DNA of 5,122 bases from Verrucomicrobiota bacterium (lineage in GTDB: Bacteria > Verrucomicrobiota > Verrucomicrobiia > Verrucomicrobiales > DEV007). The translations under genes were made by a program, and so were the position numbers. Below are positions 1,022 through 5,122 of the stretch, piece after piece. Within the stretch, counting starts at the first letter, position 1. Each line of letters begins with the position of its first letter. A model generated the notes under the pieces. That model made no database searches. It saw nothing but the letters and a program-made list of their open reading frames with translations, and was not told where the DNA came from. The DNA is taken from contig JAHDIL010000043.1 in assembly GCA_020630835.1 (NCBI GenBank), forward strand, positions 4,317 through 9,438. Direction: 5' to 3'.

Positions 1022-2959
1022 CTATTCAGCCTTAATGATACGAGCCTCAAACTTCTCCAGAGCCGCCTTAATCAGTGGATCCTCGCGAAATTCCTCCTCC
1101 GAGATAGCAGGAATTTCCTCCTCTGCCGTTTCCGCAGGCACCGGTTCAGCGTTTGTTTCTAGCCGGTTCTCGGGACTTTCGGCTGCGGAATGAGTTTGCG
1201 GGTTGGCTAGCTCAGCCTCTGGCTCATCATCAGGAATGTCTGGGAGAGGCTTACTCTCAACCGCCTCACTGATTTGGATGCGAATACTCACAGGGGCGCC
1301 GACTAGAGCCGTTAGGTAGGTATCAAACCAATCACTGCTCTGCTCTAAAGGCGAACGATAAAACCCCTGCTCGGGATGAAGCGCAATCTCGAACTGATTC
1401 CCATCAAAAGAGACGAAACTGGCGGCCTCTGCATAGAGAGCCTTCATCGGGTTTTTAGAGGAGAACTCCGCGACGGTCTGTTGCCACAACGATTCACCGT
1501 CCGATGAATCGTTGGCCGAAGGAATTAGCTTTGGTGCGGGCTCACTTACTGACGGAGCATCGGTGTCACTACCACCGTCATCAGGGCTAAGCTTAGTCTG
1601 CTCACTACCTGGTTCTAAAGCACTAGCAAGAGAAATAGCCGGCTCGACCTCCTGGGAAACGGTAGCGGGCTGCTCCAGGCCAGGTTTCGACACGTCTGCA
1701 GTGTTGAAGTCGCTTGCCGCAACCGCCTCCCTCGAGTCGTTGCCCGCTACTTCAGGCGTTTTTTTTTCCGCGACACCCGCTGGTGAAACGGCTGCCGTTT
1801 CTGGTAGCTGGGCGGCAGATTGTTCTACCTGACCGAGGAGCGTAATGACATCATTGAGATCGGGCTCACCCAGAGCCTGAATGGCGCGGATGGCTGCTAT
1901 CTCTAGCTGCAGCTTCTTGTTGCTTGCCCACTTCATCCGGCCATCAGCCTCGGCGAGCTGATCAATCAGAGAAAGCAGACGGGCACTCGAAATCAACTGC
2001 GCATGTTCACGTGTCTTCTCTTGGATCTCAGGCGGGACCTCGGACTGAGTTGATTGCGGGTCGACTTGCAACACCAACACATGGCGAAAGTAAGTGATAA
2101 GGTCAGCGAGAAGTGTCCCCAAGTCCTTCCCTGCTGAGGCATAGCTGTGCAGCTTTTCAAGGGTGGCAGCATTGTCACGGCCCAAAATATGACCTGCCAG
2201 CTCGGCGATACTCTCGGCGGAGTTGAAACCGAAAATATCCAATACATCTGACTCGGCAATGTCATTCCCGCAAAAAGCCACCATCTGATCTAGCATCGAC
2301 TGGGCATCGCGCATGCCGCCATCTGCCCCCTTAGCAATGGCAAACGCCGCTGCGTCCGACAGAGTCACGCTCTCATTCTTAGCAATATACCCCAGATGCT
2401 CCGCAATGATGCCCGTGGGTATGCGACGCAGGTCAAAGCGCTGGCAGCGGCTGATGATCGTTGGTAAAATCTTCTGTGGATCGGTCGTGGCGAAGATAAA
2501 CTTCACATGCTCGGGAGGCTCTTCTAGCGTCTTCAGCAACGCGTTGAAGGCCGCTGTAGTCAACATGTGGACTTCATCAATGTAATAGATCTTAAACGAG
2601 CCGGATGCCGGAGCAAAATGGACAGTTTCGCGCAGCTCCCTGACCTGCTCTACCCCGTTGTTGGAGGCTCCATCGATCTCTAACACATCTAGGCTATTTC
2701 CCTCGGCTATTTCCACGCATAAGGGGTCATCCGGGTCGAAATCCACTTTCGGGCCACCTGGACAGTTGAGGGCTTTTGCCAAAATGCGCGCTGTCGATGT
2801 TTTACCCGTTCCCCGAGGCCCCACGAATAGGTAAGCATGCGCCAAACGATCCTTCTCAATGGCATTCCGCAACGTCTGGATAACGTGATCCTGACCCAAG
2901 ACATCATCAAAGGTCTTGGGTCGATACTTTCTGGCAAAAACTTGGTAGGACTCGCTCAC
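1022..2959 (-). CDS. dnaX: DNA polymerase III tau/gamma subunit (clamp loader ATPase)
   Basis: DnaX is the AAA+ motor of the clamp loader: it uses ATP to open the beta clamp and place it on primed DNA, and tau also links polymerase cores to the helicase. From GTG at 2959 the protein has 645 residues and begins with the family N-terminus (S)YQVFARKYRPKTFDDVLGQ. Visible motifs are Walker A GPRGTGKT (47-54), Walker B YYIDEVHM (125-132), sensor 1 FATTDPQK (156-163) and the SRC arginine-finger motif (170-172). The collar domain ends near residue 365. A Pro/Ala/acidic linker (about 370-487) follows, then a folded tau-type domain (about 488-565), a second acidic linker, and a terminal helix (627-641, DPLIKAALEKFEARI). 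Of the four zinc-module cysteines usual in DnaX, only C66 and C81 remain. An A9 run at codons 398-401 probably allows a short gamma form. The frame stays open upstream to an ATG at 3112, but those residues do not look like DnaX and overlap the preceding gene. No Shine-Dalgarno sequence precedes the GTG. Confidence 0.96.
   Translation of the reverse strand: MSESYQVFARKYRPKTFDDVLGQDHVIQTLRNAIEKDRLAHAYLFVGPRGTGKTSTARILAKALNCPGGPKVDFDPDDPLCVEIAEGNSLDVLEIDGASNNGVEQVRELRETVHFAPASGSFKIYYIDEVHMLTTAAFNALLKTLEEPPEHVKFIFATTDPQKILPTIISRCQRFDLRRIPTGIIAEHLGYIAKNESVTLSDAAAFAIAKGADGGMRDAQSMLDQMVAFCGNDIAESDVLDIFGFNSAESIAELAGHILGRDNAATLEKLHSYASAGKDLGTLLADLITYFRHVLVLQVDPQSTQSEVPPEIQEKTREHAQLISSARLLSLIDQLAEADGRMKWASNKKLQLEIAAIRAIQALGEPDLNDVITLLGQVEQSAAQLPETAAVSPAGVAEKKTPEVAGNDSREAVAASDFNTADVSKPGLEQPATVSQEVEPAISLASALEPGSEQTKLSPDDGGSDTDAPSVSEPAPKLIPSANDSSDGESLWQQTVAEFSSKNPMKALYAEAASFVSFDGNQFEIALHPEQGFYRSPLEQSSDWFDTYLTALVGAPVSIRIQISEAVESKPLPDIPDDEPEAELANPQTHSAAESPENRLETNAEPVPAETAEEEIPAISEEEFREDPLIKAALEKFEARIIKAE
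1742..1757 (-). other. Possible hairpin just downstream of the A9 run
   Basis: On the coding strand GCCTG (1757-1753) can pair with CGGGC (1746-1742), including one G-U pair, around a 6-base loop. The stem starts one base after the last A of the slippery run. Downstream stems stimulate ribosomal frameshifting in E. coli dnaX, but this one is short and sits closer than the usual 5-9 base spacer. It may be incidental, or a GCCT/AGGC pairing with sequence further downstream may compete. Confidence 0.35.
1759..1768 (-). other. dnaX: Candidate recoding site: A9 slippery run in dnaX
   Basis: The coding strand reads GAA AAA AAA ACG, nine As in a row (1767-1759), at codons 398-401, about 33 residues after the end of the collar domain. 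It contains the A AAA AAA heptamer in the phase needed for -1 ribosomal slippage, and the run is long enough for RNA polymerase slippage. A -1 shift, or one added A, gives K-N-A then TGA at 1754-1752, a 402-residue product. A +1 shift, or one lost A, gives K-R-L-K then TAG at 1749-1747, a 403-residue product. Both keep the ATPase and collar domains and lose the tau-specific part, which is the definition of gamma. Thermus thermophilus dnaX is known to use nine As and E. coli dnaX uses A AAA AAG. Function here is inferred. Confidence 0.75.
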
Positions 2960-3029: not shown

Positions 3030-5122
3030 CTACCGATGAAAGGTGTCTGAGCAAAGCAGATCAAGGACAAGGCTCCGCATACCATGCTGCGGATTGAGAT
3101 TCTTACTAACAATCTCTGCGACCTCCTGTTTCTCGATATGGTTTAGATTCCGGCCTGTCGCTGCAATCAGGAAATGCTCGCCAAAAGAGCGCCCTACCGC
3201 GTCAATATTTTTGAGCATCCAGGTTTTCAATTCGGCAGGATTAGCTGCAATCTCACCATCCGGCATCGTGACTTTTGTGTCGATCCTAGAGTTCTTATCG
3301 TCTTGCCGCATCTTAGGCCATTTTGTCCGCCATCGACCAACATGATCGAAGGTCTCCAGGGCGAAACCAAAAGGATCAATCTGAGCATGGCAACTCTGAC
3401 AGGATTTCGAGCTTGTGTGCATAGCAAGCTGTTCGCGTGGATTGAGGGACCCGTCCACATCAGGTGTTAGGTCAGGGATGTTATCAGGTGGCGAGGCCAA
3501 ATGTCGGCCCAAAATCTTCTCCACGACCCACGCACCGCGCACCACAGGTTGGGTATCAACACCGTTCGCCGTTACGAACATAGTTGAAATTTGTCCGAGG
3601 AGGCCGCCTTCAGGGGCGCCCTGAGCAAAAGAAAGGCGGCTAATTCGAGCTGCCTTTTTCTTTTCTCCAGTAAAATCGATCGTCGGGTAATTAGCTCGAA
3701 GCCACTGAGCATTTCCCATAGTGAAACCCGGATCAATCAACCGCTCAAGAGGTTCGTTTTGCTGAATCAGCTCGCAGATGAAAGCCACTGTTTCCTGGCG
3801 AGACGCTCGCTGATCAGCAGATGAAAACTTTGATTTCCGACTCGGCATTATATTCGCCATTTTCCACATCCCGAGCCAATCATCGACAAAGGTTTCCAAG
3901 AACGACTCGTGATTTGCACGGCGCACTTCGCTTGCACATAGGCTTCGGAACTGCTCCTGGTCGAGCATTTTTCCAGCAGCTGCTGCCTGATAGATTTCTC
4001 CCCTCGGATGAGTTTGGTGAAGTAAGTAAGACAGGCGAGACGCTAATTGCCAATCGTCCAATCCGTCATCATTCGTAAAACGGAAGAGAAAACGGGGAGA
4101 TTGTATAATCGCCCTAATCAATTCATTGATCCCCTCCTGATGACTGCCTCCTGCGGACCAACGCCCCTGAGCAATCGAGACGAAATGTTGCCGCTGCTCA
4201 GCCAAAACGGGCGAACGAAAGGCTCTTGGCAGCAGGGAAGCTAGCTTTTCATCCAGTTGTTTCACATTCTGATCGATATCGCCATGGTCTTGGCCGAAGA
4301 GCTCACGAGTGCGTTCGATCGCTCTCTGCTCACGTGGACTATGAAGGCGCACTAGCGGTCCCCTGACCTCAATGGTATGCAACTCAAGTGCGGGACCTGT
4401 CTCGAAGTATTCGTTCGCCAAGAGGTCCCCTAAATTAAACTTGCCTATATTGCTGCCGAAGATTTTCAGCGCTGCCTTGGTGTGGGAATCCTCTAGCTGA
4501 GCCCGTGAAGTATCCAAATCTGGATCTGCTAACGCCTCCTTCAGCTTGTCCCAACCAACGCGCCCCCTAAGTGCCGTCACTGATTTTCTCCCGCCCCTCT
4601 CGTCGAACAAAAGACTCTGCCATGCCGCCAAGTATCTCGGGTCCTCACGGAAACGATTTTCTGCATGCACTTGGAGTTCCCTCACGTTGTGAGTAAACGG
4701 CGAGTCTTTCCTCCTTGCTAGGACTGTCTCTCCTTCGAAAAGTTCTGCACGAAGGGTATGCAGCTGAGGCTGCTCTGATGAAATAGTAATATCAGCGAGG
4801 TGCCGAAATGTTTCCACTGAAACCCGGTCACTATAGAGTCGAGGCCTGGCTCTAAGCTCCATCGTCATAGTTTGGTCTGATCCAGTCTTTTTTCCAAGAA
4901 AGGTAGAAGCCTTGACCTTAATTTCAAAAATGCCCGACTGCTTCACTTCGAAATGTTTTGGCCATGAGCTAGCCCTCATGGTATCCAGTGAAGCGGAAGC
5001 AAAACGCAAGGCATCTCCCACCACGGTTGAAGCCGAAAATGAAATAACCATATCTTGAGGGGCAATCTCGTGGCTGCGAGTATCGAATACAGCCAAATCC
5101 TCAGTATAACGAAAATGAGACG
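3030..5122 (-). CDS. Multidomain haem c protein (DUF1595-DUF1592-DUF1588-DUF1585), 5' end outside the window
   Basis: The frame is open from the right edge to a TAG at 3032-3030, at least 697 codons, and no ATG start is visible, so the N-terminus is missing. Counting from the Leu codon at 5096, the visible part has a beta-rich segment (about 15-120, with the GIFEIKVKA strand), a region ending in a typical IEVRGPL (242-248), a DUF1595-like part (about 283-340, SPRFLFRF), a DUF1592-like part (about 345-472), a DUF1588-like part (about 492-592) and a C-terminal DUF1585-like part (about 612-686). DUF1588 carries the single haem c motif CQSCH (566-570) followed by the family-typical IDPFGFALETFDHVGRWR. 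These proteins are abundant in Planctomycetes and Verrucomicrobia. They are usually exported, often have a further cytochrome c and DUF1587 domain at the N-terminus, and are thought to act in redox chemistry or polymer degradation; their substrates are unknown. A DUF1552 gene often follows such genes, but here dnaX comes next after 70 bases. Confidence 0.92.
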   Translation of the reverse strand, partial: SHFRYTEDLAVFDTRSHEIAPQDMVISFSASTVVGDALRFASASLDTMRASSWPKHFEVKQSGIFEIKVKASTFLGKKTGSDQTMTMELRARPRLYSDRVSVETFRHLADITISSEQPQLHTLRAELFEGETVLARRKDSPFTHNVRELQVHAENRFREDPRYLAAWQSLLFDERGGRKSVTALRGRVGWDKLKEALADPDLDTSRAQLEDSHTKAALKIFGSNIGKFNLGDLLANEYFETGPALELHTIEVRGPLVRLHSPREQRAIERTRELFGQDHGDIDQNVKQLDEKLASLLPRAFRSPVLAEQRQHFVSIAQGRWSAGGSHQEGINELIRAIIQSPRFLFRFTNDDGLDDWQLASRLSYLLHQTHPRGEIYQAAAAGKMLDQEQFRSLCASEVRRANHESFLETFVDDWLGMWKMANIMPSRKSKFSSADQRASRQETVAFICELIQQNEPLERLIDPGFTMGNAQWLRANYPTIDFTGEKKKAARISRLSFAQGAPEGGLLGQISTMFVTANGVDTQPVVRGAWVVEKILGRHLASPPDNIPDLTPDVDGSLNPREQLAMHTSSKSCQSCHAQIDPFGFALETFDHVGRWRTKWPKMRQDDKNSRIDTKVTMPDGEIAANPAELKTWMLKNIDAVGRSFGEHFLIAATGRNLNHIEKQEVAEIVSKNLNPQHGMRSLVLDLLCSDTFHR
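3387..3401 (-). other. Haem c attachment motif CQSCH
   Basis: The codons TGT CAG AGT TGC CAT encode Cys-Gln-Ser-Cys-His, the classical CxxCH signature for covalent haem c attachment. The two Cys bind the haem vinyl groups and the His is an axial iron ligand. It sits in the DUF1588 module and is the only CxxCH in the visible protein. Haem c is attached outside the cytoplasm, so the protein is expected to be exported, although its signal peptide would lie outside the window. Confidence 0.85.

What the first reader, a model, noticed from the sequence alone, without database searches (positions are those of the whole stretch)
1742..1768. A9 slippery run in dnaX with stop codons in both shifted frames: a probable gamma-producing recoding site
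The sequence shows nine consecutive As on the coding strand in phase GAA AAA AAA ACG at codons 398-401, just after the collar domain. The -1 frame ends at TGA after two codons and the +1 frame at TAG after three, so slippage in either direction gives a 402-403 residue product that keeps the AAA+ and collar domains. Thermus thermophilus dnaX is known to make gamma by transcriptional slippage on nine As, and E. coli by -1 ribosomal frameshifting. A standard annotation shows only the full-length tau. That this PVC-type bacterium makes both forms is inferred; a weak hairpin directly downstream leaves open which mechanism acts.
Basis: partly seen in the sequence, partly recalled or inferred. Interest (0 to 1): 0.8.

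Follow-up and report, generated by a model that had tools for sequence, protein, structure and literature searches.

The report
Slippery A9 site in clamp-loader gene
In a verrucomicrobial bacterium, the gene for the DNA-polymerase clamp loader (dnaX) holds nine As in a row with a stop codon just beyond in both shifted reading frames, which likely lets RNA polymerase slip and would give a short protein (gamma) beside the long one (tau); in the related dnaX genes compared here, such long A runs with near stops recur far more often than protein sequence and codon usage predict.

Summary
The minus-strand dnaX (2959-1022, 645 codons) has nine As at 1767-1759 (GAA AAA AAA ACG). One extra A ends translation at codon 402, one fewer at 403, soon after the collar domain. 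Close relatives do not share it: 0 of 26 readable same-genus dnaX have a run over A6; the nearest (95% identical) is cut by its contig end before the site. Wider comparison supports recoding. After the collar, A>=9 runs exceed codon-shuffle expectation (7 vs 1.0 in 146 genes; 27 vs 8.1 in a second set of 69), while control genes and infB linkers have fewer than expected. The extra-A stop lies within 5 codons of the run at 11 of 11 and 24 of 27 sites, against 25 of 95 and 10 of 44 lysine pairs outside such runs. Nineteen dnaX show the reverse arrangement, tau reached by slippage. Best reading: Thermus-type transcriptional slippage making gamma. Selection and mechanism are inferred; no RNA or protein was seen. 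New member of a known kind.

The parts
1022..2959 (-). dnaX, DNA polymerase III subunit tau (645 codons, GTG start chosen by me), 0-frame product
   Evidence: NCBIfam TIGR02397 429 bits against cut-off 250 and PRK05563 465 against 400; Pfam; translation
2423..2896 (-). AAA+ ATPase domain (PF13177, residues 22-179), kept in gamma
1856..2257 (-). collar domain III (PF12169, residues 235-368), kept in gamma
1759..1767 (-). A9 slippery run, codons 398-401 (GAA AAA AAA ACG); predicted slippage site
   Evidence: comparative tests
1752..1754 (-). TGA that ends the -1 frame (one extra A): EKKNA*, 402 aa
1747..1749 (-). TAG that ends the +1 frame (one A fewer): EKKRLK*, 403 aa
1768..1820 (-). possible stem-loop in the nascent RNA abutting the run on its 5' side; role untested, weak evidence
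   Evidence: z -2.60, 1 of 200 shuffles; z -2.20 on 52 nt; the helix abuts the run only in the longest of three fold windows
1025..1758 (-). tau-only part: variable linker and C-terminal part, absent from the predicted gamma

Best explanation
The nine-A run soon after the collar of this dnaX is a likely transcriptional slippage site that would yield the short clamp-loader protein gamma beside the in-frame tau. Predicted working: RNA polymerase slips on the A9, giving mRNAs with 8, 10 or 11 As; those out of register run into TGA (2 codons on) or TAG (3 codons on) and give a 402-403 residue protein with the ATPase and collar domains but no tau C-terminus, while mRNAs with nine (or twelve) As give tau. 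Shown: the run, its phase, both stops, the domain content, and the statistical recurrence of such sites in related dnaX genes. Inferred: that polymerase rather than ribosome slips, that selection keeps the site in this species, and that gamma is used in the replisome.
For: (1) Anatomy: A9, both stops within 3 codons, all gamma domains upstream. (2) Codon-shuffle tests: A>=9 after codon 345, 7 observed vs 1.04 expected, 0 of 400 shuffles reach it, in 146 dnaX that were not found through their run; 3 vs 0.41 in the 78 genes alone; 5 vs 0.60 without the genus of G350. A7 and A8 runs show no excess (9 vs 8.7, 4 vs 3.5) and A_AAA_AAG none (6 vs 5.4). (3) Controls: 554 ORFs from 40 genomes have 2 A>=9 runs vs 6.3 expected; 50 infB linkers, richer in lysine pairs, have 0 vs 3.5. 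(4) Stops: one extra A meets a stop within 5 codons at 11 of 11 A>=9 sites (3.1 expected from random linker positions); one A fewer within 3 codons at 6 of 11 (1.4 expected); lysine pairs outside A>=8 runs 25 of 95, A8 runs 0 of 5. (5) Second set, predicted in note: 27 sites in 19 of 69 genes vs 8.1 sites expected; extra-A stop within 5 codons 24 of 27 (8.6 expected); one gene per family 6 of 34 vs 2.5. (6) 19 of 20 complete short dnaX carry A9/A10 beside their stop, and in all 19 one extra A opens a long further frame. (7) Thermus thermophilus dnaX makes gamma this way on nine As (PMC1088944 passages; PMC5009743 passages and section 21).
Against: No RNA reads, proteomics or reporter data. The run is absent from 26 of 26 readable same-genus dnaX and the closest relative cannot be read there, so in this genus it is a lone, possibly transient state. 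In 384 genomes of the class a pattern for A>=8 in the near linker hit dnaX in only 5, the window included. Three of the 11 first-set A>=9 sites (L114, L121, L251) lie near the gene's 3' end, where slippage would remove only a short tail. A5 and A6 runs are also modestly over-represented after the collar (131 vs 93; 44 vs 35), and in-phase A_AAA_AAA is too (14 vs 7.0), though each of the seven A>=9 runs holds one of these. The predicted stop within 5 codons was missed by 3 of 27 sites (6 codons). Some other genes of this genome carry internal A9/T9 runs with no such logic.
Confidence: 0.66

Rival explanations
1. Chance homopolymer in a variable linker: the A9 arose neutrally, perhaps slips a little as noise, and no gamma is selected for in this species.
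For: Absent in the 26 other readable dnaX of the genus; the genome holds 11 A/T runs >=9, some mid-gene; codon shuffles of this gene make such a run in 1.6% of trials, and the window was picked for its run.
Against: Excess of A>=9 in dnaX against a deficit in control genes; both shifted-frame stops within 3 codons, while lysine pairs outside A>=8 runs have the extra-A stop within 5 codons in 25 of 95.
Confidence: 0.2
2. Programmed -1 ribosomal frameshifting on A_AAA_AAA makes gamma, as in E. coli dnaX, and transcriptional slippage is minor.
For: An in-phase A_AAA_AAA lies in the run, and A_AAA_AAA is over-represented after the collar (14 vs 7.0; seven of the 14 follow from the A>=9 runs themselves); the extra-A/-1 direction has the tightest stops; the only tRNA-Lys found among 13 tRNA loci of this half genome, and among 17 of 25 of G016, has anticodon UUU.
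Against: No A_AAA_AAG, no AGGAG-like motif upstream by eye, no downstream structure beyond shuffles; no excess of A_AAA_AAG or of A7 runs, which would suffice for ribosomes; stops are also enriched in the +1 frame.
Confidence: 0.11
3. Assembly or sequencing artefact: the true run length differs.
For: One draft genome of 276 contigs, 52% complete; homopolymers are error-prone.
Against: With nine As the 645-codon frame is open and the C-terminal part aligns with relatives; eight or ten would break tau; the same length recurs in other assemblies.
Confidence: 0.03

Closest known systems
Thermus thermophilus dnaX transcriptional slippage site (A9)
   Same: Nine As on the sense strand, tau in the 0 frame, stops close by in both other frames, a shorter second product (PMC1088944 and PMC5009743 passages).
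   Different: Different phylum; the Thermus run is about seven-eighths through the gene, here about three-fifths; slippage is measured there, not here; here the site is not shared by the genus.
Two-ORF dnaX with poly-A, tau by frameshift (Antonov et al. 2013, PMC3711429 section 23 read)
   Same: Poly-A of 7-10 at the gamma/tau junction; 19 verrucomicrobial dnaX found here have this layout.
   Different: The window has the opposite polarity: tau is in frame and slippage would make gamma. Whether the nine A10 species of that paper include Verrucomicrobia could not be checked (its supplement was not open to me).
E. coli dnaX -1 ribosomal frameshift site (A_AAA_AAG with Shine-Dalgarno-like motif and second stimulator; Antonov passages; stem-loop in review passages)
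   Same: Same gene, same product logic: -1 shift and stop at once after the collar.
   Different: No A_AAA_AAG, no clear Shine-Dalgarno-like motif by eye, no downstream stem-loop above shuffles.

Membership tests
DnaX (DNA polymerase III gamma/tau) | Match above curated cut-off over ATPase, lid and collar | tested here: met
   (TIGR02397 429 vs 250 bits)
Thermus-type dnaX slippage site | Run of nine As on the sense strand, tau open in the 0 frame | tested here: met
Thermus-type dnaX slippage site | Nearby stops in both non-zero frames | tested here: met
   2 and 3 codons after the run
Thermus-type dnaX slippage site | mRNA population with more or fewer As than the DNA | not testable with these tools
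   no RNA reads available
Thermus-type dnaX slippage site | Two proteins, tau and gamma, in comparable amounts | not testable with these tools
   no protein data available
Thermus-type dnaX slippage site | Conservation of the site in close relatives (supporting, not defining) | tested here: not met
   0 of 26 readable same-genus dnaX
E. coli-type dnaX ribosomal frameshift site | Heptamer A_AAA_AAG in phase | tested here: not met
   run is followed by ACG; only A_AAA_AAA in phase
E. coli-type dnaX ribosomal frameshift site | Downstream stem-loop | tested here: not met
   z -0.02, -0.26, -1.07
E. coli-type dnaX ribosomal frameshift site | Upstream Shine-Dalgarno-like motif | tested here: inconclusive
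   by eye only: upstream bases TTTCACCAGCGGGTGTCGCGG hold no AGGAG; the ribosome's own anti-Shine-Dalgarno was not looked up
Two-ORF dnaX (tau by frameshift) | 0-frame stop right after the poly-A | tested here: not met
   0 frame stays open to codon 645 in the window; met in 19 related loci

The most novel reading that the evidence does not exclude
Across the Verrucomicrobiota, dnaX is a recurrently rebuilt transcriptional-slippage switch. A9/A10 sites after the collar arise or vanish many times (at least 9 changes for 11 carriers on one tree). They run in either polarity: gamma by slippage when tau is in frame, tau by slippage when gamma is in frame. Some lineages (7 of 7 sampled members of one family) carry two such sites in tandem. 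The window's A9 is a fresh, species-level gain of this switch.
Probability: 0.6. Interest if true: 0.74.

Novelty: new member of a known kind. Interest (0 to 1): 0.6.

Why it matters
Why bacteria make gamma at all, and whether its recoding is kept by selection, has been argued from a few species. Here one phylum offers many changes and reversals of the same short signal in one essential gene, with related species that lack it as natural controls. If slippage is confirmed, a plain reading of these genes mis-states DnaX: gamma is missed where tau is in frame, and tau is missed where gamma is in frame. It also gives a simple genomic sign of slippage-prone RNA polymerases: an excess of A>=9, not A7-A8, with stops set at once behind it.

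Tried and rejected
Rfam scan of the window: four weak hits below their gathering scores, none connected with dnaX. Downstream hairpin as stimulator: rejected, not above shuffles. Ribosomal frameshifting as main mechanism: not favoured, see rivals. Inheritance of the window's site within the genus: not seen in readable members. The missing end of the closest relative's dnaX, and of dnaX in four other same-genus genomes without a full gene: no match elsewhere. Protein search: the nearest full-length relatives are about 55-58% identical; only the best 120 of 7,999 hits were listed, none shorter than 570 residues, so no deposited short form was seen there. tRNA-Lys repertoire: only UUU seen in incomplete genomes, inconclusive. 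Homology of the slipped tails of the short dnaX to in-frame tau tails: no significant profile match (best E 0.22), so that they are tau rests on length, position and the shared motif within family f17. Upstream hairpin: kept only as a weak lead. One search ran but its pattern was wrong and printed nothing; one search repeats it. Literature: dnaX with Verrucomicrobia and frameshift gave two papers, one of which counts Verrucomicrobia genomes (passages) and one of which I saw only in the listing; dnaX with Opitutus/frameshift and with Akkermansia/slippage gave none; subscription papers are mostly missing from that library. Penno et al. 2015 on stem-loop-aided slippage is recalled, not read.

Full report
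What is there. The window is part of contig C41 of a draft genome of 1.8 Mb in 276 contigs, 52% complete. The nearest named contig (96% over the matched segment) is titled Verrucomicrobia, most others Verrucomicrobiales. The minus strand carries, 5' to 3', an open frame with PSCyt3/PSD domains (5120-3030), dnaX (2959-1022) and a TPR protein (863 to the edge). The dnaX frame is 645 codons from a GTG; Pfam finds the ATPase, lid and collar domains up to residue 368. Nine As lie at 1767-1759, beginning at the second base of codon 398. One A more ends at TGA after EKKNA (402 residues); one A fewer ends at TAG after EKKRLK (403).

Is it more than chance in this gene? Lysine is AAA 7 times and AAG 22 times here, glutamate GAA 19 and GAG 42; the only lysine pair after the collar is the one in the run. 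Shuffling synonymous codons gives A>=9 in 801 of 50,000 trials. That is unusual, but the window was picked for its run. The genome has 11 A/T runs of nine or more, some inside other genes.

Close relatives. Of 32 other same-genus genomes, 28 gave a dnaX locus (in the rest it was missing or in pieces). One of the 28 is cut at its contig end and one is partly masked; none of the 26 others has an A run over six. The cut one is the nearest relative (95% identical over 402 residues); its contig stops about 50 bases before the site, and no other contig of it matches.

Wider relatives. In 384 genomes of the class, a pattern for A>=8 lying 111-232 nt behind the collar motif WAxNK hit dnaX in five: the window, G344, G295, G350 (A9 each) and G191 (A8); three other hits were not read as dnaX, and the reversed pattern hit nothing. 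The motif is present in 76 of 82 dnaX, so the pattern misses some genes. I then collected 154 distinct dnaX of the window's order and class (scripts). Outside this genus A9 runs turned up in L109, L198/G344, L181/G295, L212/G350, L252/G431, L250/G437, L248/G443, L251/G448 (A10) and the pair L114/L121. Seven of these ten (L109, L198, L181, L212, L252, L250, L248) lie at codons 386-412 counted from the RKYRP motif, like the window's at 389; L251, L114 and L121 lie near the 3' end. G350 and G431, of one genus, share GAA AAA AAA ACG GAT GAR ATA GCR GGC inside otherwise different linkers. On a tree of 151 dnaX cores the 11 carriers need 10 changes, 9 forced by well-supported branches (FastTree): recurrent, not simply inherited; gain and loss cannot be told apart.

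Codon-shuffle test. Keeping each protein and its codon usage, 146 genes (the window and the four species found by the pattern left out; three short or masked genes also left out) have 7 A>=9 runs after codon 345 against 1.04 expected, 0 of 400 shuffles as high; A>=8 11 against 4.7; A>=8 in the core 0 against 0.1. C and G runs after the collar are depleted and T runs are not in excess. By exact length: A5 131 vs 93, A6 44 vs 35, A7 9 vs 8.7, A8 4 vs 3.5, A>=9 7 vs 1.0; A_AAA_AAG 6 vs 5.4, A_AAA_AAA 14 vs 7.0, of which the seven A>=9 runs hold one each (the last by arithmetic). The A5-A6 excess is unexplained. Because the relatives of G350 were fetched after its run was seen, I repeated the test without that genus (5 vs 0.60 in 137 genes) and alone (3 vs 0.41 in 78 genes; two of the three, L114 and L121, are near kin).

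Controls. 554 open frames of 150 or more codons from forty 20-kb stretches (40 genomes; first 20 codons left out) have 2 A>=9 runs against 6.3 expected and 11 A>=8 against 19.9. Fifty infB genes, whose linkers hold 247 lysine pairs (dnaX after the collar: 114 in 154 genes), have 0 A>=9 in the linker against 3.5 and 3 A>=8 against 9.0. So the sampled genes avoid long A runs, and dnaX does the opposite.

Stops. After one extra A, a stop comes within 5 codons of the run at 11 of 11 A>=9 sites (3.1 expected from random positions in the same linkers; none of 20,000 draws); after one A fewer, within 3 codons at 6 of 11 (1.4 expected, p 0.001). These 11 include the window and two close pairs (L114/L121, L212/L252). 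For lysine pairs outside A>=8 runs it is 25 of 95 for the extra A; for A6 runs 18 of 45, A7 1 of 10, A8 0 of 5.

Second set. Before reading it I wrote down the prediction. From a phylum-wide search (288 genomes, 279 with a match; only the best-scoring places were printed) I fetched 60 places with longer frames and 20 with short ones, roughly in score order but not exhaustively (for example G584, G518 and G480 were passed over without a rule), and used the loci that the search itself returned. Ninety new dnaX were found, 69 long and 21 short; in three fetched stretches my motif missed the gene. In the 69 long ones A>=9 sites number 27 in 19 genes, against 8.1 sites expected; with one gene per family, 6 of 34 genes against 2.5. 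The extra-A stop is within 5 codons at 24 of 27 and within 6 at 27 of 27 (8.6 expected within 5); the other frame stops within 7 at 24 of 27 (7.8 expected); lysine pairs outside runs 10 of 44. In six families every sampled member has a site (19 of 19 genes); in the 28 other families of the set none of 50 does. Family f86 (7 of 7) carries two runs, at codons 370-371 and 392-397, the first with CTA AAA AAA AAC TTT AAA TCC GGC in six of seven.

The reverse layout. Among the short genes 20 are complete (19 of them fetched because their frames looked short, one, L456, met by the way). Of these 20, 19 have A9 or A10 with the 0-frame stop 1-3 codons later; one extra A opens 108-210 further codons and one fewer A stops within 1-6 codons. 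L400 has no run and simply ends. The 19 are f17 (13), f84 (3), f13 (2) and f44 (1); in f17 the slipped frames end in a shared motif. This is the two-ORF layout described by Antonov et al. (section 23 read). A profile of the slipped tails did not match in-frame tau tails significantly. On a tree of 240 rows the in-frame-tau sites need 15 changes and the reverse layout 2 (long branches make details unsure).

How it most likely works. The excess at nine or more As but not at seven or eight, the lack of excess of A_AAA_AAG, stops enriched in both shifted frames, and no downstream structure together fit slippage by RNA polymerase as in Thermus better than by the ribosome (inference; Antonov et al. 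take shifts in both directions as a sign of transcriptional realignment, passage). A stem-loop abuts the run upstream in the window (z -2.6). Helices of 4 or more pairs end within 3 nt of the run at 6 of 11 sites against 2.3 expected (p 0.013) with 52-nt windows, 5 of 11 with 40 nt (p 0.054) and 30 nt (p 0.025); in the window itself only with 52 nt (post hoc). It may help slippage but is weak evidence.

Verdict. The site is most likely a Thermus-type gamma site (0.66). The chance reading (0.2) stays alive because this genus otherwise lacks it and no transcript was seen. As a kind it is known; its recurrence and reversals across this phylum were not found in the papers I could search (listings; three papers read in part).

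Noticed in passing
L383-L393, L395-L399, L401, L402, L456: 19 verrucomicrobial dnaX have gamma in the 0 frame ending 1-3 codons after A9/A10, with a long further frame reached only by a shift; a plain reading of the gene would miss tau.
   Followed up: yes
L426, L434, L437, L438, L441, L442, L443: Family f86 dnaX carry two long A runs (codons 370-371 and 392-397), each with stops in the shifted frames: a possible double slippage site.
   Followed up: partly
L251 codon 543 (G448, same family as the window): A10 in frame in a 65% GC dnaX near its 3' end, with stops at once in both shifted frames; it would remove only about 50 residues.
   Followed up: no
L114 codon 514, L121 codon 529: A9 close to the 3' end of dnaX in two closely related species; slippage would change only the last 20-odd residues.
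   Followed up: no
L144 (G000:C3:10088), L173, L174: Other genes of this genome with internal nine-A or nine-T runs: a histidine-kinase-like frame, an ATPase-like frame and a sugar-transferase-like frame (labels by eye).
   Followed up: partly
first set of dnaX, after codon 345: A5 and A6 runs are also over-represented against codon shuffles (131 vs 93, 44 vs 35), while A7 and A8 are not; unexplained.
   Followed up: no
window 3030-5120, minus strand: Large protein with PSCyt3 and PSD domains (DUF1588/1592/1595/1585) directly upstream of dnaX.
   Followed up: no
L123, last codons: A C17 run at the cut end of the contig in dnaX; may be an assembly artefact.
   Followed up: no
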